From assembly GCA_963965975.1 (NCBI GenBank), contig OZ014417.1, forward strand, positions 4,321,821-4,385,820: a stretch of 64,000 bases of DNA, in the 5' to 3' direction. This document shows positions 1-25,929 of this stretch, in pieces. Under the pieces are notes generated by a model. The model saw only the letters and a list, made by a program, of their open reading frames with translations. It did no database searches and was not told where the DNA came from. The position numbers and the translations under genes were made by a program. Position 1 is the stretch's first letter; every line of letters starts with the position of its first letter. This DNA is from Xestospongia bergquistia (lineage: Eukaryota; Porifera; Demospongiae; Haplosclerida; Petrosiidae).

Positions 1-3000
1 TCTTACAAGTTTTTTGAGATATTTGGAGATGATAACAATGAAGAATATGAAGACTTTGAAGGATTTGATATTGAAGATGTGTAAGTTAGATTATATCAGT
101 ATTGCTGATGTTTTTATCTTAATACAGTGGCGATGTACCTCAGTGTCCAGTTAGTGAACGATATCCTAAAAGATTAATTCAACAAAAAGAATACAGAGAA
201 GATGAACTATCTGATGAAGATGAATATCTCTTAAGTTCAGTATCAATATGGTTACTTCCACAACTTTTGTTACTAGTTTGTGACAACTGTGAGGAAATTC
301 ATCATGGTGACTGTCCTGTTCATGGACCCTTACTAACTCTAGATCCTTCTAGTGGTCATGATGAAGCATCTCTACAATACACTACCGTGTTTGTTCTATC
401 TGAATTAACTGTTAAACCTTCTAAGATAGCCAATGCTGGTTTGGGTGTTTTTGCTACACAGTTTATACCTCGTGGAGTTAGGTTTGGTCCTTATGAAGGA
501 AAGAGAGTGTTAAAAGAAGAGCTCACTAAAGGAGAAGATATTAGCTACATGTGGGAGGTACTGTAATCAAATAATAAAAAAAGTATTATTTATTTTAATT
601 TATTCAGGTGAAGCATGTTGGAGAGAGGTCATATTATATTGATGGTCAATCAGATAAGCAAAGTAATTGGTTACAATTTATTAACTGTGCTCGCAATGTA
701 GATGAACAGAATTTAATAGCTTTTCAGTATCATGGTAACATCTATTATCGCTCATTCAAACATATCTATCCTGGTAATGAACTCTACGTATGGTATGGTG
801 AACAATATGCAAGAGAACTTGGGATTATAGTTAGTTTTGAAGAAGGTAAAGTAATTCTTTTGGCAGAAATAAAATTTATTATCTACTTTTAGATGATTTT
901 CAACGTTTTAAGTGCAAAAACTGTGGAAGTAGTTTTGTTTTGAAAGCCAATTTTGATTTGCATCTTCGACATAATCCTGATTGTCTTGGTGCTAATCCTT
1001 AATGTTTTACTTGTCAAAAATGTCAAGAAAGCTTTTGTGAATTGCATCAGTTACAAGACCACATTCGTAAACATGAGCAACTTGATGTAAAAGAAAGGAA
1101 TCATAAGAAAGAACTCATTTCTAATGATAAACTGGTGGTTGGAAATCTAGATAATATGTGTGATTATTGTGGAAAGAAATTTATTTGTCAGTCATCATTG
1201 AGGACTCATCTTCATATACACACTGGTGTTAAACCTTATCAATGTCAGTACTGTGGAAAAGGATTTAGTCAGAATGGTAATCTTCAAACTCATCTTCGTA
1301 TACACACTGGTGATAAACCTTACCAATGTCAGTATTGTGGAAAAGGATTTAGTAAGAATAGTGATCTCCAAAGACACCTTTGTATACACACTGGTGATAA
1401 ACCTTACCAATGTCAGTATTGTGGAAAAGGATTTATTCAGAATAGTGATCTCCAAAAACATCTTAATATACACACTGGTGATAAACCTTACCAATGTCAG
1501 TACTGTGGAAAAGGATTTAGTCGGAATGATAGTCTCCAAAGTCATCTTCGTATACACACTGGTGATAAACCTTACCAATGTCAGTACTGTGAAAAAGGAT
1601 TTATTCAGAATAGTGATCTCCAAAGACATATTCGTATACACACTGGTGTTAAACCTTACCAATGTCAGTACTGTGGAAAAGGATTTAGTCGTAATGATAA
1701 TCTCCAAAGTCATCTTCGTATACACACTGGTGATAAACCTTACAAATGTCAGTACTGTGAAAAAGGATTTAGTCAGAATAGTGATCTCCAAACTCATCTT
1801 TGTATACACACTGGTGTTAAACCTTACCAATGTCAGTATTGTGTAAAAGGATTTAGTCAGAATAGTAATCTTCAAACTCATCTTCGTATACACACTGGTG
1901 ATAAACCTCACCAATGTCAGTATTGTGGAAAAGGATTTAGTAAGAATAGTGATCTCGAAAGACACCTTTGTATACACACTGGTGATAAACCTTACCAATG
2001 TCAGTATTGTGGAAAAGGATTTATTCAGAATAGTGATCTCCAAAAACATCTTAATATACACACTGGTGATAAACCTTACCAATGTCAGTACTGTGGAAAA
2101 GGATTTAGTCGGAATGATAGTCTCCAAAGTCATCTTCGTATACACACTGGTGATAAACCTTACCAATGTCAGTACTGTGAAAAAGGATTTATTCAGAATA
2201 GTGATCTCCAAAGACATATTCGTATACACACTGGTGTTAAACCTTACCAATGTCAGTACTGTGGAAAAGGATTTAGTCGTAATGATAATCTCCAAAGTCA
2301 TCTTCGTATACACACTGGTGATAAACCTTACAAATGTCAGTATTGTGAAAAAGGATTTAGTCAGAATAGTGATCTCCAAACTCATCTTTGTATACACACT
2401 GGTGTTAAACCTTACCAATGTCAGTATTGTGTAAAAGGATTTAGTCAGAATAGTAATCTTCAAACTCATATTCGTATACACACTGGTGATAAACCTCACC
2501 AATGTCAGTATTGTGGAAAAGGATTTAGTAAGAATAGTTATCTCCAAAGACACCTTCGTACACACACTGGTGATAAACCTAACCAATGTCAGTATTGTGG
2601 AAAAGGATTTATTCAGAACAGTGATCTCCAAAGACATCTTAATATACACATTGGTGATAAACCTTACCAATGTCAGTACTGTGGAAAAGGATTTAGTCGT
2701 AATGATAGTCTCCAAAGTCATCTTCGTATACACACTGGTGATAAACCTTACCAATGTCAGTACTGTGGAAAAGGATTTAGTTAGAATAGTGATCTCCAAA
2801 GACATATTCGTATACACACTGGTGATAATCCTTACCAATGCCAGTACTGTGGAAAAGCATTTAGCTGTAATAGCAATCTCAAGAAATATATTTGTATACA
2901 CACTGGTGATAAATTTTAACCTCACCAATGTCAGTATTGTGGAAAGGATTTATTCGTAATAGTGATCTCCAAAGACATCTTTATATACACACTGGTGATA

Positions 3001-3125
3001 AACCTTAGTACTATTGAAAAGCTCCAAAGAGATCTTCGTATACACACTGGTGATAAACCTTACCAACGTTGGAAAAAGATTTAATTATAATGCTAATCTC
3101 TAAAGATATCTTCGTATTCATCTAA
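1..3125 (+). pseudogene. PRDM9-like gene copy A (5' part outside window; broken)
   Basis: Exons read as 1-80 (acidic exon end), 128-557 (SSXRD-like motif plus first SET half), 608-845 (second SET half) and 893 onward (zinc fingers). Introns 81-127, 558-607 and 846-892 are GT-AG. SET hallmarks FGPYEG, NCAR, IYYR and VWYG match vertebrate PRDM7/9. The last exon has an in-frame TAA at 1000-1002 where copies B and D have CAA and copy C has CGA, just before the first array fingers. A second stop, TAG at 2782-2784, falls where the repeat consensus has CAG. Between them is an open stretch of about 580 codons with 19 complete C2H2 fingers; beyond 2784 fingers continue but decay with frameshifts. The 46-nt intron that splits the SET region in B-D has lost its donor G here (about 231) and reads through in frame. 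As written, the gene would give a SET protein without an array. Sequencing error at 1000 is possible but two stops make a pseudogene more likely. Confidence 0.85.
1156..3090 (+). repeat. 84-bp zinc-finger minisatellite with 588-bp higher-order repeat
   Basis: Each 84-bp unit codes for one 28-residue C2H2 finger with linker HTGDKPYQ or HTGVKPYQ. Seven consecutive fingers starting at 1321 recur at 1909 and in part at 2497, an exact 588-bp spacing. By eye the first two 588-bp copies differ at about four bases. Finger changes sit mainly at helix positions -1, 2, 3 and 6. The residues at -1/3/6 run K-D-R, Q-D-K, R-S-S, Q-D-R, R-N-S, Q-D-T, Q-N-T within one higher-order unit. This is the pattern expected of a PRDM9-type array growing by unequal exchange. 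Confidence 0.92.
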
Positions 3126-3384
3126 AATAGTTAGTGACCATTTTTGATAATCATTTATATATACATTAGACTTTATTAAGTTTCCATAGTAATAACACTA
3201 CACAAACAATAGACAATACAGATCTAGAGAAGTTAAAATAGTTCCAGGACGACTAGTCCCAAAGATCCTGAGCACAGTAACAGAATATAGTGTCATATAG
3301 TGTCATTGTAGCTAGTGGAGTAGTGAAGTCTAACAAACCTGTGACAGTAGTGTTTCTTGTACAATTTATGTATAATTTTTTTGC

Positions 3385-3452
3385 TTAGCAGTTTATACCT
3401 CATGGAGTTAGGTTTGGTCCTTATGAAGGAAGGAGAGTGTTAAAACTACTGT
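3385..3452 (+). pseudogene. Stray SET-exon fragment downstream of copy A
   Basis: About 60 bp after a TTGCTTAG acceptor-like end repeats the SET exon part that encodes FIPHGVRFGPYEGRR (compare 460-512). It is followed by stops and no second SET half. The same fragment sits after copy B at 8812-8880, so it is part of the duplicated unit. It is probably a leftover of a partial gene duplication. Confidence 0.75.
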
Positions 3453-3682
3453 ACATACTTAAATACATACAATCTTAAAGTGAACAATTAAGGATTGTGA
3501 AACACATCATAGTAATCCAACCATAGGGACATATTGGGTTTAAAAAGCAATAAAACGAATCAGGGAACTATATATGTGGAAAGGTATATGGAATGATGTC
3601 AAAGAAATGGCAAGTTTGTTTACGAGTTTGCATTGTTTTATATCAACACATGTAGGTTGCTACCTGTAATGAATGTCATAGG

Positions 3683-4112
3683 ATGAACAAAAAACCAATT
3701 GTCATTAACAGAGAGCTTCATCCAATACCAGTACATTCTCCATCGTACCATGTAACAATTGACTTCGTCAGTCCAATATCTTCAACATCCAGAAATAGGA
3801 ATCATTATCTCACTATGTTATATTATTTTACAATATGGGTAGAGGCTGTTCCCTTGCCTAGTAAATCTGCCCATAGTGTCACTGAAAATTTATTCAAGGT
3901 AATGATCATTATTAAAAGTAAATATTCATATTGTTATTATTATTCAATATTCATATAATTCGTATGCATATTTGTCACAGGTTTTTATAAGAATGGGTCT
4001 TCTTAAACTGTTGACAAGTGGTCAAGGCAGAGTTTAGATGCCAACTTGACAAAGATCTTATAAAACTTCCTGGCATAAAGTGACACTATACCACACTCCA
4101 CAGGTATATGTA
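3683..4112 (+). mobile_element. Ty3/gypsy-type integrase remnant
   Basis: The open stretch 3683-3900 reads as the start of a retroviral-type integrase core: PIPVHSPSYHVTIDFVSPIS followed by YFTIWVEAVPLPSK, where the first catalytic Asp is in the IDFV motif. It continues after an intron-like gap (3898-3980) with frame breaks. Only the N-terminal half of the core is recognisable. A second, more decayed copy lies at 9097-9520, so the insertion predates duplication of the A/B unit. No LTRs were found. Confidence 0.7.
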
Positions 4113-4378
4113 ATCATTTGCTTATGGCATACTATTATTATGTGTGAAATTGAATAGACAAATGTATTAGATGAAAGGTGGAATCTAATACTTAAATGTT
4201 GGTAAAATTCACTCATGACAAGAGATATGAATGTGATTTATTTTAAGAGATATATATGTTTGTATATATATAATATATCCAAGAATAAACCCTCTCATCA
4301 TATACTGTTTGAATTCATATTTAGTAGAATCTGCCAATGGTGTCATATTAATTGATGTTGAAACAGAGAATTTTTCAG
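4113..4378. other. No gene seen
   Basis: AT-rich sequence between the integrase remnant and the GA repeat; similar sequence follows the second integrase copy (9521-9780). Nothing coding recognised. Confidence 0.5.
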
Positions 4379-4380
4379 CT

Positions 4381-4383
<3 letters not shown>

Positions 4384-4433
<50 letters not shown>

Positions 4434-4440
4434 CAGAGAC
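4384..4440. repeat. (GA)n microsatellite
   Basis: GA dinucleotide run with a few interruptions; the equivalent tract in the next unit is 9788-9820. Confidence 0.9.
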
Positions 4441-4591
4441 AGATTAGTTCTGCATCAAATAAACTTACATAATCTTTAAATTCTGTTCTCTCAGGTATAC
4501 TAGGAAGCTTAAGGGAAGCATATATACTTTGTGGTCCAACAGGAGCTGGTTTCTTTTCTGGCTTCTTGTCATGATCTTTGAAATGTTGCAT
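4441..4591 (-). pseudogene. Unrecognised exon-like fragment (minus strand)
   Basis: On the minus strand an open stretch from an ATG reads MQHFKDHDKKPEKKPAPVGP and goes on to EFKDY, then a GTAAGT donor-like site, then the GA/CT tract. It recurs at 9822-9960 with the reading frame kept, although one copy lost codons in the middle. Frame conservation between copies suggests a former coding exon. The family is not recognised and no partner exons were identified. Confidence 0.4.
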
Positions 4592-5080
4592 AAAATTTGG
4601 ATGATATCATTCTTTAGTTTCTTTATCGGTGCTAGCTAGCAGGGAATCCTAGTGAGTCGGTAGGATCATATGGGCAACATGATAGGACATTACCTCTCTG
4701 CCTAATTAAGCCTTTTCAATAAAGAAAATATGGACAAAGGGTACATGAAATGGACGAATACTTACTAAACACATTCTTTGCAGATATATTCTTTTTTCAG
4801 GACTTGCAAAAAATATCTATATTGTAATATCTACATTGTATAAACAACAATAGTATTAATAATGTATAAAATTATATCACAATAATGTTACAATTATAGT
4901 AATAACATATAATATATCATGTATATATCTGACACCATATTGTTCTTTTTATTTCTACTGTACTACTTCTATATTTTTCTCACATTCTCAAGCAAGGATT
5001 TTCTTTGAGTAGTTAGAGTATCATAAGTGACTATAACATCCTCCGGTATAAAATAATGATAATTAATGGAAGGCTGTTAG
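4592..5080. other. No gene seen
   Basis: AT-rich intergenic sequence, with part repeated after copy B (9961-10180) and near 15420-15540. Nothing coding recognised. Confidence 0.5.
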
Positions 5081-5172
5081 TTATAAATGACGTCTATCAC
5101 CCAGTGATGCTTCGCTATCTCAACTTAGTCAACTAGATGCGTATCAACTTGGTTTTCTCCAAAGAAAGTTAG
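5081..5172 (+). pseudogene. Short fragment upstream of the acidic exon (copy B side)
   Basis: In one frame this reads SPSDASLSQLSQLDAYQLGF and ends near a splice-like site. It matches the tail of the fragments at 10217-10380 and 15172-15300, where the preceding cadherin-like beta-sandwich part is still present. Here that domain part is missing. Assignment is by similarity between units only. Confidence 0.35.
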
Positions 5173-5317
5173 TTACGTATACAATGATTGTTAATTTAGT
5201 TATAATAATTGTTAAGTTAGTTACAATGATTGTTAAATATAATTATGTTAATCTTACAATAGAGTTGAATGATGTCACTAAACAAAATGATTGAAGTCAA
5301 TTTTATTGAACTATACT

Positions 5318-5666
5318 TGATAAGAAGAGCAATAGTAAAACTGAAATAAAAGTAAAAACAAAAGAGGACAAACAAAGTATAAAGACAATAGAATTATCTC
5401 AAGATGTAGAGGATGATACTCAAAATGATGTTATAGATAATGTAGTAGATAATGAAGAATCTAGAGAACTGTCATCAGATTTATCACCTGAACATGATGA
5501 CAAACAACGTAAGATGGATCATAGTGATAATCTTCGTGAAAGTGTAGTCAGTGTTGTTGAGGAGAGTCAAGAGAAGAAAAGACAACGTTTGTTTGCTAAA
5601 AGAACAAATGAAAATACTGCTATGTCTGCAAAGCTATCACAACCTACAATATCAACAGATGATTAA
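5318..5666 (+). pseudogene. Acidic C-terminal exon of an unidentified gene (copy 1)
   Basis: About 115 codons are open from a splice-like AG near 5320 to TAA at 5664-5666, with no obvious start codon, as expected for a last exon. The product is rich in D, E, S and K (ELSSDLSPEHDDKQ; LFAKRTNENTA) and ends QPTISTDD. Copies lie before PRDM copies C (10495-10858) and D (15700-16095). This copy has lost a stretch reading KERYLACKRAK that the second copy keeps. It is 557 bp before exon 1 of copy B, on the same strand, so it is probably the end of the neighbouring gene. Whether the full gene exists is unknown, so pseudogene is a tentative label. Function not recognised. Confidence 0.45.
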
Positions 5667-5825
5667 ACCTTCTTAATTTTTATCTAAATAATAATAATTA
5701 TTAAATTAATTTATTTATGATTAGAGCCAAAAACGTTTTAGTGGAAGGAGCTAGTATTTTTAACAACAATATTATAATGGTCTCTTATCTTGTTTACCAG
5801 CTATAGTCCGAGTTGTTCAAAATGG

Positions 5826-5886
5826 TAGATGTAACATAAGAATTATGCGACTATGAAAAGAGGAGACTAGTAAAGAATATATACAA
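5826..5886 (+). pseudogene. Decayed extra exon 1 of the PRDM9-like gene (before copy B)
   Basis: ATGGTAGATG followed by the CDYEKRRL-coding stretch matches exon 1 of copies B-D, but a TAA follows after five codons and the end is lost. A matching ghost lies at 11029-11095 before copy C. Copy D has only one exon 1, in this position relative to the shared upstream sequence, so B and C seem to have gained a second first exon. Confidence 0.7.
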
Positions 5887-6059
5887 TGACTATCATTGTT
5901 ATAAATTAATTATTAAAGTAAGAACAAATAAATAAATAAATACAAATACATCTAAAGACTGCTGTAAATAAAATGACTACAACTTTCTCCTCTCAAATGC
6001 CTTTTTGTTCGCAGACTCAAACTAGACAGAGTAACATCTCGAGTGTAGGAGCGTTAAAA

Positions 6060-6222
6060 CAAAGTACCACGAGGTGTCACGTGTAGCAGGAAGTCTTGTG
6101 ATCTTCAATTATAATAACATTCATAGTTGCCCAGTTTGAATGCGAGTTTGTTCAGACGTTTCCTCCCCTTGCAGAACGTCTGGCTTCGAGACTAGTTTAC
6201 CAGCTAGTCTGAGGTGTTCGAA
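6060..6222 (+). promoter_or_regulatory. Conserved upstream block of copy B with CACGTG E-box
   Basis: A 27-nt stretch containing CACGTG (6078-6083) is identical upstream of copy C (E-box 11238-11243), within a longer block conserved between the two units and ending at exon 1. Flanking noncoding sequence is more diverged. A promoter role is inferred from position and conservation only. Confidence 0.4.
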
Positions 6223-8525
6223 ATGGCAGATGTAATGAAGGAATTATGTGACTATGAAAAGAGAAGACTAGAAAATGTTGAAAAGAATACTGAAGTCATG
6301 AAAACTTTAGGTATAATACTATTGCATGTTCAATAAAAGTCATAATAATTGTGTGTAGGTTTAGATGTTAAGTCCCAAAAGAAGAGTAGAGTTAGAAAAA
6401 GGAGAAGGATACGATATAGTAATTGTAGTAATAGTAGCAGTGATAGTGGAGATGAATGGATACCTGCTCTAGAGACTTGTGTGATGAAGAAAAAAACAAA
6501 TGTCATAAGAGGTAATAAACTTGTCAATAAAATATGGACATCATTCTTTTGTGTTTAGATAACTAAGTTACAAGAGCCTTAAAGCGGAAAAAACCACAGC
6601 AGAAGAAATATTACCAACCTGTAGAGGGGGAGGAGCCTTCATTTGAGAGCCTTGATTACAAGTTTTCTAATATATTTTCTGAGTTATTTGGAGATAATGA
6701 TAATGAAGAATATGAACACTTTGAAGGATTTGATATTGAAGATGTGTAAGTTAGATTATATCAGTTTTGCTGATGTTTTTTTTTTAATACAGTGGTGATG
6801 TATCTCAGAGTCCAGTTAGTGAACGATATCCTAAGAAATTATTTCACCAAAAAGAATACAGAGAAGATGAACTATCTGATGAAGATGAATATCTCTGTAA
6901 GTTTAGTATCAATATGGTTACTTTTAAAACTTGTATTATTAGTTTGTGACAACTGTGAGGAAATTCATCATGGTGACTGTCCTGTTCATGGACCTTTATT
7001 AACACTAGATCTTTCTAGTGGTCATGATGAAGCATCTCTACAATATACTAGTATATTTGTTCCAGCTGAATTAACTGTTAAACCTTCTAAGATGCTACAC
7101 AGTTTATACCTCGTAGAGTTAGGTTTGGTCCTTATGAAGGAAGGAGTGTTAAAGAAGAGCTCACTGAAGGAGAAGATACTAGCTACATGTGGGAGGTACT
7201 GTAATAAATACAAAATTATTAATTAGTTATATTTATTCAGGTAAGGCATTTTGGAGAGGGGTCATATTATATTGATGGTCATATTATATTGATGGTCAAT
7301 CAGGTAAGCAAAGTAACTGGTTACGATTTATTAACTATGCTCACAATGTAGATGAACAGAATTTAGTAGCTTTTCAGTATCATGGTAACATCTATTATCA
7401 CTCATTCAAGCATATCTATCCTGGTAATGAACTCTATGTATGGTAATGAACTCTACGTATGGTATGGTGAACAATATGCAAGAGAACTTGGGATCACAAC
7501 TAGCTTTGAAGAAGATAGGGTAATTCTTTTGGCAGAAATAAAGTTTACTATTTATTTTTAGATGATTGTCAACTTTATAATTGCAAAAATTGTAGAAGTA
7601 GTTTTGTTTTGAAAGGTAATTTTAATTTGCACCTTTGACGTAATCCTAAATGTCTTGCTGCTAATCCTCAATGTTTTTTACTTGTCAAAAATGTCAATAA
7701 AGTTTTGTGAATTGTATCAGTTACAAGACCACATTCGTAAACATGAGCAACTTGATGTAAAAGAAATAAATAAAAAAGCATTCATTTCCAATGATAAACT
7801 GCTAGTTGAGAATGCAGATAATATTTGTGATTATTGTGGAAAGAAATTTTCTCATCAGTCATCGTTGAGGACTCATCTTCGTATACACACTGGTGATAAT
7901 CCTTACCAATGTCAGTATTGTAGAAAAGGATTTAGTCATAATGGTAGTCTCCGAAACATCTTCCTATACACATGGGTGATAAATCTTACCAATGTCAGTA
8001 CTGTGGAAAAAGATGTAGTGATAAGAGTAATCTCAGAAAACATCATATACACACTGGTGATAAACATTACCAATGTCAGTACTGTGGAAAAGATTTTTAT
8101 CAGAATATTGATCTCCAAAGACATCTTTGTACACACACTGGTGATAAACCTTACCAATGTGAGTACTATGGAAAACGATTTAGTCAGAATGCTAGTCTCC
8201 AAAGACATCATCATATACACACTGGTAATAGACCTTACCAATGTCAGTACTGCGGAAAAGATTTAGTCAGAATGGTAGTCTCCAAACTCATCTTTGTATA
8301 CACACTAGTGATAAACCTTACCAATGCCAGTACTGTGGAAAAAGAATTTATTCAGAATAGTAATCTTAAAAAACATCTTCGTAGCCACACTGGTGATAAA
8401 CCTTACCAATGTCAGTACTGTGGAAAAGGATATAAACAAAGCTTTAATCTCCAAACTCATGTTCGTATACACACTGGTGATAAACCTTACCAATGTTGGA
8501 AAAAGATTTCATTATAATGCTAATC
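6223..8525 (+). pseudogene. PRDM9-like gene copy B (broken)
   Basis: Exons: 6223-6310 (MADVMKELCDYEKRRLENVE), 6359-6511 (basic/serine-rich), 6559-6745 (acidic), 6793-6896, 6943-7195, 7241 to about 7514, and 7562 onward. The breaks are many. Exon 3 has TAA at 6564-6566. About 25 bp coding for the ANAGLGVF part of SET are missing near 7094, shifting the frame. Short direct duplications occur near 7265-7300 and 7435-7465. The donor after exon 6 has changed GT to AT. The zinc-finger exon starts with a TGA near 7636 and the array (about 8 fingers, 7830-8500) has repeated frameshifts. The original start codon is kept here although copy C lost it. Confidence 0.88.
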
Positions 8526-9096
8526 TCTAAAGATATCTTTGTATTCATCTAAAATAATTAGTGACCATTTTTGATAATTATTTACATATACATTAGACTT
8601 TATTAAGTTTCCATAGTAATAACACTACACAAACAATAGACAATACAGATCTAGAGAAGTTAAAGTAGTTCCAGGACAAATAGTCCCAAAGATCCTGAGC
8701 ACAGTAACAGAATGTAGTGTCATGTAGTGCCATTGTAGCTAGTGGAGTAGTGAAGTGTAACTAACCTGTGACAGTAGTGTTTCTTGTACAATTTATGTAT
8801 AATTTTTTTTGCTTAGCAATTTATACCTCATGGAGTTAGGTTTGGTCCTTATGAAGGAAGGAGAGTATTAAAAATATTGTAAATAGTTAAATACATATGA
8901 TCTTAAAGTGAACAATTAAGGATTGTGAAACACATTACAGTAATCCAAACAGGTACATATTGGGTAAAACAATATAACAAATCAGGGAATTATTTATGTG
9001 GAAAGGTATATAAAATGATGTCAAAGAAATTTGTTTAAGAGTTAGCATTGTTTTATATCAACACATGTAGGTTGCTACCTGTAATGAATGTCATAA
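8526..9096. other. 3' flank of copy B with stray SET fragment
   Basis: Closely similar to the flank after copy A (3126-3682). The stray SET fragment lies at 8812-8880 and reads as in the A unit with one changed base at the first codon. No other gene seen. Confidence 0.7.
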
Positions 9097-9520
9097 GATG
9101 AACAAAAAACCAATTGTCATTAACAGAGAGCTTCATCCAATACCAGTACATTCTCCATGATACCATGTAGCAATTTACTTCGTCAGTCCAATATCTTCAA
9201 CATCCAGAAATAGGAATCATTTTATCTCACTATGTTATATTATTTTACAATATGAAGGCTGTTCCCTTGCCTAGTAAATCTGCCCATAGTGTCACTGAAA
9301 ATTTATTCAAGGTAATGATTATTATTAAAAGTAAATATTCATATTATTATTATTCAATATTCATATAATTCATATGCATATTTGTCACAGGTTTTTATAA
9401 CAATGGGTCTTCTTAAACTGTTGACAAGTGACCAAGGCAGAGTTTAGATGCCAACTTGACAAAGATCTTATAAAACTTCCTGGCATAAAGTGACACTATA
9501 ACACACCCTATCATCCACAG
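9097..9520 (+). mobile_element. Ty3/gypsy-type integrase remnant (second copy)
   Basis: Same fragment as 3683-4112, with extra substitutions and a short deletion where the other copy encodes the WVEA motif. Duplicated together with the PRDM9-like unit. Confidence 0.65.
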
Positions 9521-9732
9521 GTATATGTAATCAGTTGCTTATGGCATACTATTTTGTGTGAAATTGAATAAACAAATGTATTAGATGAAAGGTGGAATCT
9601 AATACTTAAACAATGTTGGTGAAGTTCACTCATGACAAGAAACATGAATGTGATTTATTTTAGAGACATATATGTTTGCATATAATACACCCAAGAATTA
9701 GTCCTTTCTTCATACTTCATATGAACTCATCT

Positions 9733-9787
9733 TTAGTAGAAAAGAGTTGTCATATCAATTGATGTTGAAACAGAGAATTTTTCAGCT

Positions 9788-9821
<34 letters not shown>

Positions 9822-9960
9822 GTTCTGCATCAAATAAACTTACATAATCTTTAAATTCTGTTCCCTCAGGTATACTAGGAAAATAAGCATATATACTTTG
9901 TGGTCCAACAGGAGCTGGTTTCTTTCCTGGCTTCTTGCCATGATCTTTGAAATGTTGCAT
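9733..9960 (-). pseudogene. Unrecognised exon-like fragment (minus strand), second copy, with (GA)n tract
   Basis: The minus-strand frame from 9960 reads MQHFKDHGKKPGKKPAPVGP to EFKDY, as at 4441-4591, then enters the GA/CT tract at 9788-9820. Four codons in the middle are absent compared with the first copy, without loss of frame. Family not recognised. Confidence 0.4.
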
Positions 9961-10216
9961 AAAATTTGGATGATATCATTCTTTAGTTTCTTTATCCCTA
10001 TCATTACCTAACAAGTATAATAATTATTAGTTATTATACTTCTTTATTTTTTTCACATTCTCAAGCAAGGATTTTCTTGAGCTGTTAGAGTGTCAATTAT
10101 AGTGACTATAACATCCTCCTTTATAAAATAATGATGATTAATGGAAGGCTGAGATAACAGTAATTATACAATTAATCATAACGTTTATTATCTTTCTCCC
10201 TTCTCTCAATTTTCAG

Positions 10217-10380
10217 TTCAGTTAACTGAAGGTACTACATCAGTGATAGAGATTGTTGTCATTGCTGGCCACTCAACTAAAACTTACGCAATATCTATAT
10301 ATGATGTCTATCACCCAGTGATGCTTGCCTTTCTCAACTAGATGTATCAACTTGGTTCTCTCCAAAGAAAGTAAGTCACA
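10217..10380 (+). pseudogene. Cadherin-like beta-sandwich domain fragment
   Basis: After a TTTTCAG acceptor-like site one frame reads VQLTEGTTSVIEIVVIAGHS then TKTYAISIY. The pattern (hydrophobic strand, EGTT, IEIVV, TKTY.I.I) is the C-terminal strands of the bacterial/animal cadherin-like beta-sandwich repeat (Pfam PF12733 type). A better-preserved copy is at 15172-15300. It lies before the acidic exon in the same orientation, so both may come from one gene. Only one partial domain is visible. Confidence 0.45.
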
Positions 10381-10494
10381 ATGATTGTTAAGTTAGTTAC
10401 AATGATTGTTAAATATAATTATGTTAATCTTACAATAGAGTTGAATGATGTCACTAAACAAAATGATTTGAGTCAATTTTATTGAACTATACTT

Positions 10495-10858
10495 GATAAG
10501 AAGAGCAATAGTAAAACTGAAATAAAAGGAAAACAAAAGAGGACAAAGAAAGTATAAAGGCAATAGAATTATCTCAATATGTAGAGGATAATACTCAAAA
10601 TGATGTTATAGATAATGTAGTAGATAATGAAGAATCTAGAGAACTGTCATCAGATTTATCACCTGAACATGATGACAAACAACTCAAGGTGGATCATAGT
10701 GATAATCTTCGTGAAAGTGTAGTCAGTGTTGTTGAGGAGAGTCATGAGGAGAAAAGACAACGTTTGTTTGCTAAAAGAACAAATGAAGATACTGCTATGT
10801 CTGCTAAAGAAAGATATTTAGCTTGTAAGAGAGCAAAACTATCACAACCTACAATTTA
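10495..10858 (+). pseudogene. Acidic C-terminal exon of unidentified gene (copy 2)
   Basis: Same exon as 5318-5666. A one-base loss near its start (about 10528) breaks the frame relative to copy 1, and the end reads QPTI then TAA. From about 10560 it is open and keeps the segment AKERYLACKRAK that copy 1 lacks. It lies upstream of copy C on the same strand. Confidence 0.45.
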
Positions 10859-11028
10859 ACAGATGATGAATAAACCTTCTTAATATTTTTCTAAATAATA
10901 GTAATTATTAAATTAATTTATTTTTGATAAGAGCCAATAAATTTTTAGTGGAAGGAGCTAGTATTTTTAACAACAATATTATAATGGTCTGTTATCTTGT
11001 TTACCAGTTATAGTCTGAGTTGTTCAAA

Positions 11029-11095
11029 ATGGTAGATGTAACACCAAGAATTATGTGACTATGAAAAGAGGAGACTAATAAATATTAAAAAGAAC
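11029..11095 (+). pseudogene. Decayed extra exon 1 (before copy C)
   Basis: ATGGTAGATG with CDYEKRR-coding sequence, frameshifted after five codons. Counterpart of 5826-5886. Confidence 0.65.
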
Positions 11096-11221
11096 ATATA
11101 TGATGACTATCATTGTTAAAACAATAAATAAATAAATACAAATACATCCAGAGACTGTTATAAAGGAAATAACTACAACACTCTTCTTTTTTTTGATCGC
11201 ACACTCAAACTGATTGAAGTG

Positions 11222-11391
11222 AAGTACCACGAGGTGTCACGTGTAGCAGGATGTCTTGTGATCTTCAATTATAATAACATTCATAGTTGCCTAGATTTGA
11301 ATGCGAGACTGCGAGTTTCCTCCCCTTGTCCAGAAATTCTGGCTAAGTTTACCAGCTAGTCTGAGCTGAGGTGTTCAAAACGGCAGATGTA
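11222..11391 (+). promoter_or_regulatory. Conserved upstream block of copy C with CACGTG E-box
   Basis: Carries the same 27-nt identical stretch around CACGTG (11238-11243) as upstream of copy B and runs to exon 1. As the only open copy has this block, it is the best candidate for the promoter or 5' leader; function inferred. Confidence 0.4.
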
Positions 11392-13745
11392 ATGCAAGAA
11401 TTATGTGACTATGAGAAAAGAAGATTAAGGAACGTTGAAAAGAATATTGAACTCATGAAAACTTTAGGTATAATACTATTGCATGTTCAATAAAAAGTCA
11501 TAATAATTGTGTGTAGGTTTAGATGTTAAGTCCCAAAAGAAGAGTAGAGTTAGAAAAAGGAGAAGGATACGATATAGTAATTGTAGTAATAGTAGCAGTG
11601 ATAGTGGAGATGAATGGACACCTGCTCTAGAGGCTTGTGTGATGAAGAAAAAGCCAAATGATGTTATGAGAGGTAATGAACTTGTCAATAAAATATGGAC
11701 ATCATTCTTTGTGTTTAGATAACCAACTTACAAAAGTCTTGAAGCTGAAAAAACCACAGAAGAAGAAATATTACAAACCTATATATGGGAAGGAGCCTTC
11801 ATTTGAGAGCCTTGATTGCAAGTTGTCTAATAAATTTTCTGAGTTATTTGGAGATGATGACAATGAAGAATATGAAAACTTTGAAGGATTTAATATTGAA
11901 GATGTGTAAGTTAGATTATATCAGTATTGATGATGCTTTTTCTTAATTATAGTGGTGATATACCTCAGTGTGCAGTTAGTGAACGATATCCTAAGAGATT
12001 AAGTCACCAAAAAGAATACAGAGAAGATGAACTATCTGATGAAGATGAATATCTCTGTAAGTTTAGTATCAATATGGTTACTTTTAAAACTTGTATTATT
12101 AGTTTGTGACAACTGTGAGGAAATTCATCATGGTGACTGTCCTGTTCATGGACCTTTATTAACTCTAGATCTTTCTAGTGGTCATGATGAAGCATCTCTA
12201 CAATACACTACTGTATTTGTTCCATTTGAATTAACTGTTAAACCTTCTAAGATACCCAATGCTGGTCTGGGTGTTTTTGCTACAAGGTTTATACCTCGTG
12301 GAGTTAGGTTTGGTCCTTATGAAGGAAGGAGAGTGTTAAAAGAAGAGCTCACTAAAGGAGAAGATACTAGCTACATGTGGGAGGTATTGTAAGAAAATAA
12401 TAAAAAAGTATTAATTAGTTGTATTTATTCAGGTAAAGCATTTTGGAGAGAAGTCATATTATATTGATGGTCGATCAGATAAGCAAAGTAATTGGTTACG
12501 ATTTATTAACTGTGCTCGCAATGTAGATGAACAGAATTTAATAGCTTTTCAGTATCATGGTAACATCTATTATCGCTCATTCAAGCATATCTATCCTGGT
12601 AATGAACTCTATGTATGGTATGGTGAACAATATGCAAGAGAACTTGGGATTACAACTAGCTTTGAAGAAGGTAGGGTAATTCTTTTGGCAGAAATAAAAT
12701 TCACTATTTATTTTTAGATGATTGTCAACTTTATAATTGCAAAAATTGTGGAAGTAATTTTGTTATGAAAGCCAATTTTGATTTGCATCTTCGACATAAT
12801 TCTAATTGTCTTGCTGCTAATCCTCGATGTTTTACTTGTCAAAAATGTCAAGAAAGTTTTTGTGAATTGTATCAGTTACAAGACCACATTCGTAAACACG
12901 AGCAACTTCATTTAAAAGAAATAAATAAAAAAAGGCTCATTTCCAATGATAAACTGCTAGTTGAGAATGTAGATAATATGTGTGATTATTGTGGAAAGAA
13001 ATTTTCTTGTCAATCATCATTGAGGACTCATCTTCGTATACACACTGGTGATAATCCTTACCAATGTCAGTATTGTGGAAAAGGATTTAGTCATAATGGT
13101 AGTCTCCGAAAACATCTTCTTATACACATGGGTGATAAATCTTACCAATGTCAGTACTGTAGAAAAGCATTTAATCGGAATGGTGATCTCCAAAAACATC
13201 TTCGTATACACACTGGTGATAAAACTTGCCAGTGTCAGTACTGTGGAAAAAGATGTAGTAATAAGGGTAATCTCCGCAAACATCTTCGTATACACACTGG
13301 TGATAAACGTTACCAATGTGAGTACTGTGGAAAAGATTTTTATCAGAATATTGATCTCCAAAGACATCTTTGTACACACACTGGTGATAAACCTTACCAA
13401 TGTCAGTACTGTCGAAAACGATTTAGTCGGAATGGTAGTCTCCAAAGACATCTTCGTATACACACTGGTAATAGACCTTACAGATGTCAGTACTGTGGAA
13501 AAGCATTTAGTCAGAATGGTAGTCTCCAAACTCATCTTTGTATTCACACTGGTGATAAACCTTACCAATGTGAGTACTGTGGAAAAGGATTTATTCAGAA
13601 TAGTAATTTTAAAAACCATCTTCGTATCCATACTGGTGATAAACCTTACCAATGTGAGTACTGTGGAAAAGGATTTATTCAGAATAGTAATCTTAAAAAA
13701 CATCTTCGTATCCACACTGGTGATAAACCTTACCAATGTCAGTAG
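11392..13745 (+). CDS. PRDM9-like histone methyltransferase with zinc-finger array, copy C (intact)
   Basis: Seven exons: 11392-11467, 11517-11672, 11719-11905, 11953-12056, 12103-12383, 12433-12670, 12718-13745. All introns are 45-50 nt GT-AG and phases agree, giving 689 codons. Order: N-terminal CDYEKRRLRNVEKN helix; basic KKSRVRKRRR and serine stretch; acidic segment; SSXRD-like YPKRLSHQKEYREDE; EYLFCDNC zinc knuckle; SET with FGPYEGRR, INCARNVDEQN, IYYRSF and VWYGEQY. Tyr276, Tyr341 and Tyr357 of human PRDM9 all have counterparts. Then two divergent fingers and nine array fingers, ended by TAG where the repeat has TAC. Family members trimethylate H3K4/K36 at DNA sites chosen by the array, placing meiotic recombination hotspots; here that role is inference. 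No KRAB box is seen. The ATG of copies B and D is ACG here, so the next in-frame ATG (11392) is used. Only open copy of the cluster. Confidence 0.88.
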
Positions 13746-13800
13746 TGTGGAAAAGGATATAGTGGGAATCTTAGTCTCTAAAGTCATGTTCATGTTCATC
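12960..13800 (+). repeat. 84-bp zinc-finger repeat of copy C
   Basis: Nine fingers plus one decayed finger after the stop. Residues at -1/3/6 run C-S-T, H-S-K, R-D-K, N-N-K, Q-D-R, R-S-R, Q-S-T, Q-N-N, Q-N-K. Unlike copy A, no higher-order repeat is seen; only the last two fingers are near-identical. Confidence 0.88.
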
Positions 13801-14068
13801 TTAAAAATAATTAACTATTTTTTCTAATGACTATTTATTAACACTTCATTAAGTTACTATAGTAACAACACTATGCAAACAATGGACAATACAGATCTAG
13901 AGAAGTCAAAAGTAGTTCCTTGAAAACTAGTTCCAAAATTCCAGAGCACAGTAACAGAATATAGTGTTACTGTAGCTAGTGAAGTAAGTGAAGTCAAGTT
14001 AACACCTTTAACAAGTGGTAGTGGTGTTGTCATGACAACTATTATCATATCTAAAATTTGTTCCACCA

Positions 14069-14208
14069 GATAAAATCTTGCAAACCATTTTTTATCCTAG
14101 GATATAATATTGCTGCAGGATTTTGTCACAAATTTATCTAAAGACAAAAAAAATTTTGACTTGCAATATTTTATCCTAGTATAAAAAATGGTTTGGAATA
14201 CTTTATCC
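14069..14208. repeat. Foldback (inverted) repeat
   Basis: Arms 14069-14113 and 14162-14208 are inverted copies of each other, sharing AAACCATTTTTTAT and TCCTAGGATA-like motifs around a short loop. The counterpart after copy D is 19025-19160. Possibly a small MITE. Confidence 0.7.
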
Positions 14209-14359
14209 CAGGACAATAAATGTCTTGCTATATTTAAGGATATTATGATTATCATTTTGTCTATGTTAGAGGGCTGATAATGCTAGCATATTTTAAAAAA
14301 TGTAATAAACTTTTGAAATTATCTAGAACATTGTACAGAATTTTATTACAGTACTAGTT

Positions 14360-14790
14360 GTCACAAAACCAAAAGGATGATCTTTTTTAATGACTGGTAC
14401 CTCTTCCAAGACTTCCATGAAGGCATCATTATATTACAATTCAGAACATGTACTGTGCTGAATCATCTTTAAATCTTTGATCTCTGGCATCTGACATTTG
14501 CAGTATATTAGTATTTTTACAATGTTGGTGATTTATGGACTTTTGACCTACATGCCAAGAATTTCTTGATTTAAGCAGCTGTACATGTGTAAGTAGTCTA
14601 TCATCATTCGTTGATCAAATGTATATCTACCTGCATCATCTCCCATAGCAATCACTGACACAGAGCAAAGAGACCATAATCAGATGAGCCAACTTGTGAC
14701 TGGCAATATCTATATCCATAAAAATAAAATGAAACTTAGTGAATAAAAACAGATAAGATATATATACCTGAAATTGATTTCTCTATGAGT
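14360..14790 (-). pseudogene. Ulp1/C48-type protease remnant (minus strand)
   Basis: Diverged copy of the remnant at 19375-20030. The minus-strand SSDCGLF-type active-site segment is no longer clean, and the exon with the catalytic His is missing: sequence goes from the shared intron straight to a later part of the unit near 14790. Coding capacity is lost. Confidence 0.6.
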
Positions 14791-14799
14791 GGAATAATA

Positions 14800-15171
14800 A
14801 AGTCACAGGTTGTGATAATGAAGAAGATTGTTATAAAAAACTTTAGATACAGAAACAAGAGGTTGAGATGATACTAAAGGTTGTAATGATAAAGTGATGG
14901 GTGAAGAATTTAGAGATGGAGATAGTAAAGAAGGTGGTAATATAGGAGAAATGACAGGGGATGGTGATATAATAATAGGAAAGTAAATAGATGTGGATGA
15001 ATGAAAGTTATAACTTACTGTGAAAGTATCATTTTGATGAAACTCTAAAGATAAAAGAGAGTCTTCAACATCAGAATCCAGGCCTAATGTGATTTAGAAG
15101 AATTGTCACAGTCAAGTGACATTGAAGCAACAGAATGATTTACCAATTCTAGGGAGATGCTACAAATAAAA
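14800..15171. other. No gene seen
   Basis: Purine-rich sequence partly matching 20165-20300 of the D unit. No recognisable coding content. Confidence 0.5.
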
Positions 15172-15300
15172 CAGTTCAGTTAACTGAAGGTACTACATCA
15201 TTGATAGAGATTGTTGTCACTGCTCAAGATGGTGACTCAACTAAAATTTACACAGTGTCTATACAATGTTTATCATCCAGTGATGTTGGCCTCTCTTAAC
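15172..15300 (+). pseudogene. Cadherin-like beta-sandwich domain fragment (second copy)
   Basis: One frame reads VQLTEGTTSLIEIVVTAQDG then STKIYTVSI, closer to the family pattern (V.A.DG...TYTISV) than the copy at 10217. It ends in a TAA soon after. In this unit the sequence is followed by a partly deleted spacer before the acidic exon. Confidence 0.5.
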
Positions 15301-15699
15301 AAACTGAAATAAAAGAGGACAAAGTCTAAAGACAATAGAATTATTTCAACATGTAGAGGATGACACTCTAAATGAATAAATAAATAAATAAATATCACAA
15401 TAAATGTTACAATGTTACAATTGTATGTAGTCAAAAACATGTAATATATCATGTATATATCTGACACCATATTGTTCTTTTTATTTCTACTTCTATATTT
15501 TTCTCACATTCTCAATAAAGGATTTTCTTTGAGTTGTTAGAGTAAGAAAGTTAGTTACGTATACAATGATTATTAATTTAGTTACAATAATTGTTAAGTT
15601 AGTTACAATAATTGCTAAATATAATAATTATGTTAATCTTACAATAGAGTTGAATGATGTCACTAAACAAAAAATGATTGAAGTCAATTTTATCAAAAT

Positions 15700-16096
15700 A
15701 TTCTTGACAAGAAGAGCAATAGTAAAACTGAAATAAAAGTAAAAACAAAAGAGGACAAACAAAGTATAAAGACAATAGAATTATTCCAAGACATAGAACA
15801 TGAAACTGAAAATGATATTATAAATAATGTAGTGGATAATGAAGAATCTAGAGAATTGTAACCAGATTTATCACCTGAACATGATAACAAACAAACTCAA
15901 GGTGGATCATAGTGATCGTGGTGATCTTCCTAAAAGTGTAGTCAGTGTTGTTGAGGTGAGTCAAGAGGAGAAAAGACGACGTTTGTTTGCTAAAAGAACA
16001 AAATGAAGATACTGCTATGTCTGCTAAAGAAAGATGTCTAGTTCGTAAGAGAGTAAAACTATCACAACCTACCATTTCAACAGATGATCCTCTTAA
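15700..16096 (+). pseudogene. Acidic C-terminal exon of unidentified gene (copy 3, broken)
   Basis: Matches 5318-5666 and 10495-10858, but a TAA interrupts near 15858 and base losses and gains shift the frame after 15890. Confidence 0.55.
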
Positions 16097-16214
16097 CTTG
16101 TAATTAAAAATAATTATTATTACTTTTTTGGTAAGACCAATAAAATTTTAGTGGGCGGGGCTAGTATTTTTAACGGAAATAGTCATGTTCATCAGCTAGC
16201 CTGAGATGTTCAAA

Positions 16215-18790
16215 ATGGCATATGAAACGCAACAATTATGCGAGTATGAGATGAGAAGACTAGAGAGGGTTGAAAAGAATATTGAACTCATGAAAACTAT
16301 AGGTAAAATACTGTATTGCATGGTAAATAAAAAGTCATAAAGATTCTATAGGTTTAGATGTCAAGTCCCAAAAGAAGAGTAGAGTTAGAAAAAAGAGAAG
16401 AAGACAATATAGTAATTGTAGTAATAGTAAAATTGATAGTGGAGATGAATGGATACCTGCTCTAGAGACTTGTGTGACAAAGAAAAAAGCAAAAGACATG
16501 AGAGGTAATAATATATATAAAAATATGGATTTAATTCTTTATGTTTTGTGCCAGTAGTAATACAGTGTAATATAGGAAAACATGTGGTACGTATTTGATG
16601 CAGCTGTAATGTTAGACTATCTCTCTCAATGTTAAGATCACCAAGTCATGAGAGTCTTGAAAAAGCAAAAACAACAGCAGAAGAAATATTACAAACCTTT
16701 AAATTTAAAAGGGAAGGAGGCTTCATTTGAGAGCCTTGATTACAAGTTGTCTAATGAGTTGTTTGAGTTATTTGGAGATGATAATAATGAAGAATATGAA
16801 GACTTTGAAGGGTTTGATATTGAAGATGTGTAAGTTAGATTATATCAGTATTGATGATGTATTTATCTTAATATAGTGGTGATGTACCTCAGTGTCCAGT
16901 TAGTGAACGATATCCAAAGAGATTAATTCACCAAAATGAATACAGAGAAGATGAACTATCTGATGAAGATGAATATCTCTGTAAGTTTAGTATCAATACG
17001 GTTACTTTTAAAACTTGTATATTAGTTTGTGACAACTGTGAGGAATTTCATCATGGTGATTGTCCTGTTCATGGACCCTTACTAACTCTAGATCCTTCTA
17101 GTGGTCATGATGAAGCATCTCTACAATATACTACTGTATTTGTTCCAGCTGAATTAACTGTTAAACCTTCTAAGATAGCCAATGCTGGTCTGGGTGTTTT
17201 TGTTACACAGTTTATACCTCGTGGAGTTAGGTTTGGTCCTTATGAAGGAAGGAGAGTGTTAAGAGAAGAGCTCACTGAAGGAGAAGATACTAGCTACATG
17301 TGGGAGGTACTGTAATAAAATAATAAGAAAGGATTAATTTTTTAAATTATTTAGGTGAAGCATAATAGAGAGAGGTCATATTATATTGATGGTCAATCAG
17401 ATAAGCAATGTAATTGGTTACGATTTATTAACTGTGCTTGCAATGTAGATGAATAAAATTTAATAGCTTTTCATTATCATGGTAACATCTATTATCACTC
17501 ATTCAAGCATATCTATCCTGGTAATGAACTCGTATGTATGGTATGGTAAATAATATGCAAGAGAACTTGGGATCACAACTAGCTTTGAAGAAAGTAGGGT
17601 AATTCTTTTGGCAGAATAAAATTTACTATTTATTGTTAGATGATTGTCAACTTTATAATTGCAAAAATTGTGGAAGTAGTTTTCTTTTGAAAGCCAATTT
17701 TAATTTACATCTTCGACATAATCCTAATTGTCTTGCTGCTAATCCTCAATGTTTTACTTGTCAAAAATGTCAAGAAAATTTTTGTGAATTGTATCAGTTA
17801 CAAGACCACATTCGAAAAAACAAGCAACTTGATGTAAAAGAAATAAATAAAAAAGGGTCATTTCCAATCTAGTTGAGAATGCAGATAACATGTGTGATTA
17901 TTGTGGGAAGAAACTTTCTTGTAAGTCATCATTGAGGACACATCTTCGTATACACACTGATGATAATCCTTACCAATGTCAGTATTGTGGAAAAGTATTT
18001 AGTCATAATGGTAGTCTCCGAAAACATCTTCCTATACACATGGATGATAAATCTTACCAATGTCATTACTGTAGATAAGGATTTAAAAGAAAACATCTTC
18101 ATGTACACACTTGTGATAAAACTTGCCAGTGTCAGTATTGTTGAAAAACATGTAGTAATAAGAGTAATCTCCACAAACATCTTCGTATACACTCTATTGA
18201 TAAACGTTACCAATGTGAGTACTGTGGAAAAGATTTTTATCAAAATATTGATCTTCAAAGACATCTTCGTACACACACTAGTGATAAACCTTACCAATGT
18301 CAGTACTGTGGAAAAGGATTTAGTCAAAGCTGTAATCTACAAACTCACGTTCCTATACACACTGGTGATAAACCTTACCAATGTCACTACTGTGGAAAAA
18401 GATTTAGTCGTAATGATTATCTCCAAGCTCATGTTCATATACACACTGGTGATAAAACTTACCAATGTCAGTACTGTGAAAAAGGATTTAATCAAAGCAG
18501 TAAGCTCCAGAATAATCTTTGTATACACACTGGTGATAAACCTTAGTTACCTTACCAATGTCAGTACTGTGGAAAATGATTTAGTTGTAATGGTAGTCTC
18601 CAAACTCATGTTTTATACACACTGGTGATAGACCTTACCAATGTCAGCACTGTGGAAGTAGATTTTAGTCTCCAAACTCATCTTCATATACACACTGGTG
18701 ATAAACTTTACTAATGTCAGTACTGTGGAAAAGGATTTCATCATAATGGTGGTCTCCAAAGTCCTGTTCGTGTTCATCTTAAAAATAATT
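16215..18790 (+). pseudogene. PRDM9-like gene copy D (broken)
   Basis: Exons 16215-16302 (ATG kept), 16352-16504, 16637-16829, 16877-16980, 17026-17306, 17355-17593 and 17640 onward; intron 2 is 132 nt instead of about 46. The first five exons are open, and the SET N-half reads as in copy C. In the second SET half NCAR has become NCAC and a TAA (17454-17456) follows in DEQN. An extra G near 17531 shifts frame in the VWYG region. The finger exon has a deletion near 17870 and stops at about 18076, 18140, 18545 and 18580. About ten finger units are traceable to 18770. The early exons would still allow a truncated product lacking SET C-half and fingers. Confidence 0.87.
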
Positions 18791-23291: not shown

Positions 23292-23497
23292 AAAGAAACA
23301 GAGGAGCCACGCCCTTATTGAATCATGTGACGAACACGTTGTATGATCTTGTCAAACATTATGCGTACGTTTACCAACACCTTAATTTAATATAATTTAG
23401 TATAATTAATGTTGTTGTTGTTCACATGTACTTTATTATATTGGAATTGCGTTGTTTACATGTACTTAAGTTTTACTAATATCTTTTAACAGATGAC
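22757..23497. repeat. Large inverted repeat, left arm
   Basis: About 741 bp, inverted match to 25177-25917 (paired positions sum to about 48674). By eye the arms differ at only a few sites, for example two residue changes in the 113-residue C2H2 frame. The left arm continues into the MHDILEG part; the right arm does not. Confidence 0.88.
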
Positions 23498-25917: not shown

Positions 25918-25929
25918 TTTACTTTTTGT

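What the first reader, a model, noticed from the sequence alone, without database searches (positions are those of the whole stretch)
1..18790. Four-copy tandem cluster of a PRDM9-like gene with a single survivor
Four units, with spacings of about 6.66, 5.16 and 4.92 kb between matching exon positions, each carry SSXRD-like, SET and C2H2-array parts in PRDM9 order. Only copy C is open, and it keeps the three catalytic tyrosines. A lone active PRDM9-type gene beside decaying tandem sisters resembles the birth-and-death history of PRDM7/PRDM9 in mammals, but in what looks like a sponge-grade genome. This raises the question of hotspot-type recombination control outside vertebrates.
Basis: partly seen in the sequence, partly recalled or inferred. 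Interest (0 to 1): 0.9.

Follow-up and report, generated by a model that had tools for sequence, protein, structure and literature searches.

The report
Sponge genome with dozens of PRDM9s
A sponge genome carries dozens of mostly tandem copies of PRDM9, the gene that in mammals decides where chromosomes recombine, and many look intact with different DNA-binding arrays, so the four copies with one survivor seen in this window are only a corner of a much larger gene family.

Summary
Confirmed: four PRDM9-like units at 1-18.8 kb with the stated spacings; only copy C is open in the window. Not supported: 'single survivor'. The window holds one outlying cluster of about 69 PRDM9-like loci in a 146-Mb genome, mostly tandem on contigs C7 and C1. 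I modelled 43; 39 miss no exon, and 23 of these are open from the KRAB-like exon (unread in one) through SSXRD-like, SET and C2H2 exons with usable splice sites; 18 of 23 keep Y276/Y341/Y357. Copy C is atypical: no conserved start Met, cut array. Between sister copies finger contact residues diversify (dN/dS 1.6 against 0.6 elsewhere) while SET is weakly constrained (0.64). A CW-PWWP (ZCWPW1/2-type) gene is present. PRDM9 in sponges is already in print; an expansion of this size I did not find in seven searches. Best reading: demosponge PRDM9 orthologues in birth-and-death expansion, many plausibly active; a recombination role is inferred. Against: Pfam KRAB/SSXRD models find nothing here, the SET tree is unresolved, no expression data, 26 loci unmodelled.

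The parts
1..80 (+). Copy A, end of linker exon x3; its KRAB-like exon and exon x2 lie about 450-155 bp before the window (locus L023)
128..231 (+). Copy A SSXRD-like exon; donor GT lost
277..557 (+). Copy A zinc knuckle and SET exon 1, open
608..845 (+). Copy A SET exon 2, open
893..3007 (+). Copy A zinc-finger exon: stop at 1000-1002, then an array open for 593 codons (20 Pfam C2H2 stretches), with a 588-bp (7-finger) block repeated at up to 99-100% identity
6212..6310 (+). Copy B KRAB-like exon
6359..6502 (+). Copy B exon x2
6577..6745 (+). Copy B exon x3
6793..6896 (+). Copy B SSXRD-like exon
6943..7514 (+). Copy B SET exons, broken (28-bp shorter exon 1; 17- and 19-bp tandem duplications in exon 2)
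7562..8530 (+). Copy B zinc-finger exon, frameshifted
11369..11467 (+). Copy C KRAB-like exon, probably the first coding exon; conserved start Met replaced by Thr (ACG), next in-frame ATG four codons on
11517..11672 (+). Copy C exon x2, basic stretch and acidic DSGDEWTP block shared with invertebrate PRDM9
11737..11905 (+). Copy C linker exon x3, close to neutral between copies
11953..12056 (+). Copy C SSXRD-like exon (RYPKR..YREDELSDEDEYLF)
12103..12383 (+). Copy C zinc knuckle and SET exon 1 (holds the residue matched to Y276)
12433..12670 (+). Copy C SET exon 2 (residues matched to Y341, Y357)
12718..13745 (+). Copy C zinc-finger exon: post-SET finger and C2H2 array; TAG at 13743-13745 cuts the following finger
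16204..16302 (+). Copy D KRAB-like exon
16352..16496 (+). Copy D exon x2
16655..16829 (+). Copy D exon x3
16877..16980 (+). Copy D SSXRD-like exon
17026..17593 (+). Copy D SET exons; exon 2 has a stop and one extra base
17640..18770 (+). Copy D zinc-finger exon, broken

Best explanation
The units are demosponge PRDM9 orthologues: a KRAB-related block, an SSXRD-like block, a zinc knuckle, a PR/SET domain with its catalytic tyrosines and a C2H2 array on one exon. By tandem (and partly inverted) duplication the gene has grown to about 69 loci; copies arise and die, and at least 23 still look translatable. Each open copy probably makes a histone H3 K4/K36 methyltransferase aimed by its own array. 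Most likely those expressed in germ cells mark many motif sets for meiotic double-strand breaks, and the CW-PWWP (ZCWPW1/2-type) protein of the same genome reads the marks. Shown here: architecture, copy number, open frames, conserved tyrosines, contact-residue diversification, presence of a CW-PWWP gene. Inferred: methylation, DNA binding, germline expression, control of recombination.
For: About 69 loci in 4 clusters on C7, one on C1 and 2 singletons. Seven exons in conserved order; 23 of 39 models with no missing exon open with usable splice sites, one with its first exon unread. PDB: PRDM9 first at 155.6 bits, PRDM14 103.7, PRDM12 94.8, PRDM11 85.5. Homologues of the KRAB-like-to-SET stretch at up to 96% coverage in animals, many named PRDM9 or PRDM7. 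KRAB-like plus x2 against 12 invertebrate PRDM9 N-termini: hhalign probability 98.3; linker-exon control 0.3 and 8 column shuffles 0.1-0.5. 18 of 23 open copies keep all three tyrosines. Contacts -1, 2, 3, 6: amino-acid diversity 0.73 against 0.23 (208 fingers, 25 copies with ORF of 600 aa or more); in 10 sister pairs dN/dS 1.61 against 0.60, Fisher p 4.5e-5; 25 of 25 arrays distinct. zf-CW 45.9 bits plus PWWP 41.7 bits in one C9 gene.
Against: Pfam KRAB and SSXRD find nothing at these loci, though neither is listed for five proteins named PRDM9/PRDM7 from Hydra, Limulus, Lineus, Haliotis and Mytilus or for the Ephydatia homologue (Lineus list cut at 25 of 30 rows). The free SET tree mixes other long-branch PRDMs among the PRDM9s; one clade is not rejected but not shown (p-AU 0.27). 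SET constraint is weak: 0.50 all pairs, 0.64 independent pairs, 0.59 among 9 broken copies; the closest pair differs by 3 nonsynonymous and 0 synonymous changes. Four open copies have Y276F and one Y357F. No within-array homogenisation (0.853 within, 0.849 between) and little sign of finger exchange, unlike classical PRDM9. No ordinary C2H2 gene was used as a control for contact diversity. No expression, histone or recombination data.
Confidence: 0.62

Rival explanations
1. The expanded copies are sequence-specific chromatin regulators that chase transposons or tune somatic genes, as KRAB zinc-finger genes do, and steer recombination little or not at all.
For: Large clustered arrays with diversified contacts resemble KRAB-ZFP clusters (recalled). 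Dozens of motif sets at once would be unusual for hotspot choice. Weak SET constraint and tyrosine changes in 5 of 23.
Against: Full PRDM9 order is kept and the KRAB-like exon is the most constrained measured (0.46); a CW-PWWP gene is present.
Confidence: 0.24
2. Mostly relics and assembly duplicates: one or two copies work and the rest are recently dead or uncollapsed haplotypes.
For: 16 of 39 models without a missing exon fail the strict test. Inverted near-copies are 97.5-97.8% identical. Salmonids show 6-14 paralogs with one, sometimes two, full-length (PMC11703093, passages).
Against: 12 same-strand copies in 56 kb of C7 cannot be alleles of one locus; median pairwise dS of the SET stretch is 0.10; 23 open frames of 605-813 aa would not all survive long without selection.
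Confidence: 0.1
3. One reading: one lone active PRDM9 beside dead sisters, as in PRDM7/PRDM9.
For: True inside the window.
Against: At least 22 other open copies elsewhere, and copy C lacks the conserved start Met and part of its array.
Confidence: 0.02
4. A different PRDM (PRDM11- or PRDM14-type) that converged on PRDM9 order.
For: The deep SET tree is unresolved and groups PRDM12/14/4 with cnidarian and sponge rows.
Against: Best PDB hit PRDM9 by 50 bits over PRDM14; KRAB-like, SSXRD-like and knuckle parts together with invertebrate PRDM9; a separate PRDM12/14-type gene on C11.
Confidence: 0.02

Closest known systems
Vertebrate PRDM9 (mouse, human)
   Same: KRAB-related, SSXRD-like, zinc knuckle, PR/SET and one-exon 84-bp C2H2 minisatellite; matched catalytic tyrosines; contact-residue diversification
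   Different: About 69 loci and at least 23 open copies instead of one; KRAB-like block shortened at its N-terminus; fingers no more alike within an array than between arrays
Salmonid PRDM9 alpha/beta paralogs (PMC11703093; passages read)
   Same: Multi-copy PRDM9 with tandem duplicates, pseudogenes and full-length copies
   Different: There 6-14 paralogs per genome, usually one full-length; here several-fold more loci and many full-length
Invertebrate PRDM9 (Nematostella, Lottia, Capitella in PMC2779102, passages; Hydra, Mytilus, Lineus and others)
   Same: Full-length architecture; contact positions under selection in Nematostella
   Different: No comparable expansion seen in the passages read
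Sponge PRDM9-like proteins in databases: Amphimedon A0A1X7ULJ8, Ephydatia Em0017g774a, Dysidea avara (9 rows, 8 on one 65-Mb contig, some of them isoforms)
   Same: Nearest relatives; Dysidea is also multi-copy; in the trees they join the window copies
   Different: The Dysidea rows read show no KRAB-like start and mostly bear other names (ZNF431-like, PRDM14-like, set-17-like)

Membership tests
PRDM9 (PRDM7/9) | PR/SET domain closest to PRDM9 | tested here: met
   PDB best hit 4c1q, 155.6 bits against 103.7 for the next family
PRDM9 (PRDM7/9) | SET phylogeny inside PRDM7/9/11 | tested here: inconclusive
   Free trees interleave other PRDMs; one clade not rejected, p-AU 0.26 and 0.265
PRDM9 (PRDM7/9) | KRAB-related domain | tested here: met
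   hhalign 98.3 with controls at 0.5 or less. Pfam KRAB: no hit at the loci, nor listed for invertebrate PRDM9s
PRDM9 (PRDM7/9) | SSXRD | tested here: inconclusive
   Collinear alignment with named invertebrate PRDM9 by reading; Pfam SSXRD not found; no separate profile test made
PRDM9 (PRDM7/9) | Catalytic tyrosines Y276, Y341, Y357 | tested here: met
   Copy C and 18 of 23 open copies; mapping by my count on the 4c1q alignment
PRDM9 (PRDM7/9) | One-exon C2H2 array with fast-evolving contact residues | tested here: met
PRDM9 (PRDM7/9) | Concerted evolution of fingers within an array | tested here: not met
   Within 0.853, between 0.849; 8 identical pairs within and 31 between copies, the latter mostly between near-identical copies. 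A frequent trait of PRDM9 rather than a defining one; copy A does hold a recent 7-finger duplication
PRDM9 (PRDM7/9) | Meiotic expression, H3K4/K36 methylation, hotspot control | not testable with these tools
   No transcriptome, ChIP or genetic map
ZCWPW1/ZCWPW2 (partner) | CW and PWWP domains in one protein | tested here: met
   Pfam on a stretch of L011 joined by eye; which paralog, and the exact exon borders, not tested

The most novel reading that the evidence does not exclude
A polygenic PRDM9 system: in this sponge dozens of PRDM9 genes with different finger arrays act together, or serve as a reservoir from which arrays are recruited, so that hotspot motifs are renewed by gene turnover between loci rather than by allele turnover at one locus.
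Probability: 0.33. Interest if true: 0.92.

Novelty: new variant of a known kind. Interest (0 to 1): 0.74.

Why it matters
PRDM9 is usually treated as one fast-evolving gene per genome. A genome with about 69 loci and at least 23 open full-length copies is a natural test of Red Queen models of hotspots: does a repertoire of binding specificities buffer hotspot erosion, and how do many PRDM9 proteins share the meiotic machinery? It also provides an early-branching animal in which PRDM9-guided recombination could be tested directly, and a warning that sponge copies lie in databases under other names.

Tried and rejected
'Single survivor' was rejected after the genome-wide search. Pfam KRAB and SSXRD were searched genome-wide and gave one KRAB match on C12 (21.0 bits, E 0.047) and no SSXRD over the cut-off. 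Finger exchange between copies was tested: among pairs from copies with SET identity under 0.95, 7 of 16346 finger pairs (any position) and 4 of 1470 same-place SET blocks were identical, so no claim is made. Within-array concerted evolution was not found. Tree 1 had badly cut rows. Trees 2 and 3 used 15 of the 49 homologues; Saccoglossus was dropped for lack of the anchor motif and P0004, P0009, P0017, P0037, P0042, P0046, P0049 of tree 1 were left out. Counts: one search used 25 copies with ORF of 600 aa or more and left out the first two finger types; one search's strict set of 23 differs (drops C7_899429, C7_3643021 and C7_3680209, adds C7_3533752). SET statistics used 34 of the 43 models, those with unchanged SET exon lengths. 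Paper searches for a PRDM9 expansion or sponge PRDM work; three returned nothing and one search listed 12 of 239. The library lacks most subscription papers.
Full report
Observation. The four units are real. Lifting the exons of copy C onto the other copies finds the same series in each: KRAB-like exon, x2, x3, SSXRD-like exon, knuckle plus SET exon 1, SET exon 2, zinc-finger exon (copy A's first exons lie before the window, in L023). SSXRD-like exon starts at 128, 6793, 11953 and 16877 give 6.665, 5.160 and 4.924 kb.

First, the exon at 11369-11467 reads VFKTADVMQELCDYEKRRLRNVEKNIELMKTLG and, with the next exon (..DSGDEWTP..), matches the N-terminus of invertebrate PRDM9 (hhalign probability 98.3; linker-exon control 0.3, eight column shuffles 0.1-0.5). 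Resemblance to the C-terminal half of the human KRAB-related domain is from memory. Ephydatia's homologue starts with the same block, MEFATEDELCEYEKKRLENIQRN, which suggests that the sponge protein begins here. Of the 23 open models 21 have the Met of FKM-ADVM (or a close variant); copy C has Thr; in the other exception the exon was not read.

Second, the scale. The window is C7:4321821-4385820 of a 146-Mb, 21-contig genome. SET exon 2 of copy C has 82 matches, which merge into 70 loci, one of them a different PRDM on C11 (its best PDB hits are PRDM14 and PRDM12). The remaining 69 (three of them fragments under 200 bp) lie at C7 0.84-0.90 Mb (12, all +), C7 3.43-3.74 Mb (33, 31 of them -), C7 3.87-4.00 Mb (10, all +), C7 4.32-4.34 Mb (4, the window), C1 1.67-1.75 Mb (8, five - then three +), C4 (1) and C14 (1). 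The tool calls such counts lower bounds. I could fetch and model 43; 39 miss no exon (in two the first exon fell off the fetched stretch), and 23 of these have a frame of 605-813 aa with usable splice sites. By my regular expression they carry 3-14 fingers, median 11. 18 of 23 keep all three catalytic tyrosines, four have Y276F and one Y357F. Y357 is stated as essential in PMC6116924 (passage); I mapped the residues by counting on the 4c1q alignment.

Identity. The knuckle-SET stretch hits PRDM9 in the PDB at 155.6 bits, then PRDM14 103.7, PRDM12 94.8, PRDM11 85.5. Among 49 homologues the first are Amphimedon (59% over 60% of the query), Ephydatia (41% over 94%) and Dysidea, then Clytia, Hydra, Limulus, Lineus, Mytilus and others, many named PRDM9 or PRDM7. 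Against this: Pfam KRAB and SSXRD are silent at these loci, though neither is listed for five named invertebrate PRDM9/PRDM7 proteins and the Ephydatia homologue (the Lineus list was cut at 25 of 30). The SET tree puts the window copies with other sponges (100/97, 87/94) but places PRDM2 among bilaterian PRDM9s and PRDM4/12/14 beside the cnidarian-sponge group; holding all PRDM9s and PRDM11 together is not rejected (p-AU 0.265). I therefore rest the family call on architecture plus similarity, not on the tree.

Selection. SET: mean pairwise dN 0.050, dS 0.100, ratio 0.50 in 25 copies with ORF of 600 aa or more; 0.59 in 9 broken ones. On 12 independent pairs the ratio is 0.64 (p 0.003). By exon: KRAB-like 0.46 (p 0.023), x2 0.65 (p 0.17), x3 0.95 (p 0.71), SSXRD-like 0.68 (p 0.15), SET1 0.65 (p 0.042), SET2 0.62 (p 0.026). 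Constraint is thus real but weak, and some very recent pairs show only nonsynonymous changes in SET. Fingers: over 208 fingers, amino-acid diversity at -1, 2, 3 and 6 is 0.73 against 0.23 elsewhere, dN/dS 1.81 against 0.89; between 10 sister pairs 131 nonsynonymous and 20 synonymous changes at contacts (1.61) against 243 and 105 elsewhere (0.60), Fisher p 4.5e-5, with similar synonymous rates. That test treats changes as independent and fingers as rightly paired, and I ran no ordinary C2H2 gene as a control.

Partner. One C9 gene joins a CW (45.9 bits) and a PWWP domain (41.7 bits) (joined by eye from L011). ZCWPW1 and ZCWPW2 are coupled to PRDM9 in vertebrate losses (PMC8892340: search listing with the start of the abstract, and a reference passage).

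Mechanism. From the parts, each open copy most likely makes a histone methyltransferase guided by its own array; with a CW-PWWP reader in the genome, marking of meiotic break sites is the most economical role. Expression, enzymology and recombination are not shown.

Comparison and novelty. PRDM9 in sponges and cnidarians is in print (PMC13186367, passage) and contact-site selection in Nematostella since 2009 (PMC2779102, passages). Salmonids have 6-14 paralogs, usually one full-length (PMC11703093, passages). I found no report of an expansion of this size (open-licence papers only). Dysidea avara also shows several paralogs, mostly under other names, so multi-copy PRDM9 may be common in demosponges.

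Limits. 26 of about 69 loci are not modelled. Inverted near-copies (97.5-97.8% identical) on C7 and C1 could be young palindromes or assembly duplicates; twelve same-strand copies in 56 kb cannot be alleles of one locus.

Noticed in passing
G000 C7:3.43-3.74 Mb (mostly -) against C7:3.87-4.00 Mb (+); C1:1.67-1.70 Mb (-) against 1.74-1.75 Mb (+): Clusters face each other in opposite orientation. L020 (+) and L021 (-) of C7 match at 97.8% over 5.7 kb, as large palindromes or assembly duplicates would; of C1 only same-strand copies were compared (L033/L034, 97.5% over 4.7 kb).
   Followed up: partly
window 10521-10859 and the same place upstream of other copies: A 112-codon ORF ending ..SAKERYLACKRAKLSQPTI travels with the PRDM9 units (7-9 of 11 copies); no Pfam hit; 30 homologues, all on ENA contigs without names, up to 89% identity.
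   Followed up: partly
window 3378-3445 and 8806-8873: A 68-bp scrap of SET exon 1 sits downstream of the arrays of copies A and B and of several other copies, a relic of an older duplication.
   Followed up: no
window 1207-3007 (copy A array): The longest array (21.4 units of 84 bp) has a 588-bp, 7-finger block repeated at up to 99-100% identity, yet lies behind a stop codon, so growth of the array or death of the gene is recent.
   Followed up: no
G000 C9:911 kb (L011): CW plus PWWP domain gene, ZCWPW1/2-type.
   Followed up: partly
G000 C11:5.644 Mb (L046): Another PRDM gene with three C2H2 fingers; best PDB hits PRDM14 and PRDM12.
   Followed up: partly
window 43126-46464: BEL/Pao-type retrotransposon ORFs: Pao peptidase 134.7 bits, reverse transcriptase match below cut-off.
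   Followed up: partly
window 22755-23497 and 25177-25919: A 743-bp inverted repeat at 98.5%, each arm with a 133-codon ORF weakly matching C2H2 models.
   Followed up: no
window 20374-21607: Tandem repeat of about 143 bp.
   Followed up: no
window 10153-10338: Weak match to a cadherin-like beta-sandwich domain (20.7 bits, below cut-off 24.2) just upstream of copy C; similar letters recur near 15.2 kb (by eye).
   Followed up: no
window 63200-64000: DDE_3 transposase-like ORF running off the window, below cut-off.
   Followed up: no
Dysidea avara proteins P0003-P0006, P0010, P0015, P0017, P0019, P0034: Several PRDM9-like paralogs, eight of nine rows on one 65-Mb contig, most named ZNF431-like, PRDM14-like, set-17-like and so on; some rows are isoforms.
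   Followed up: no
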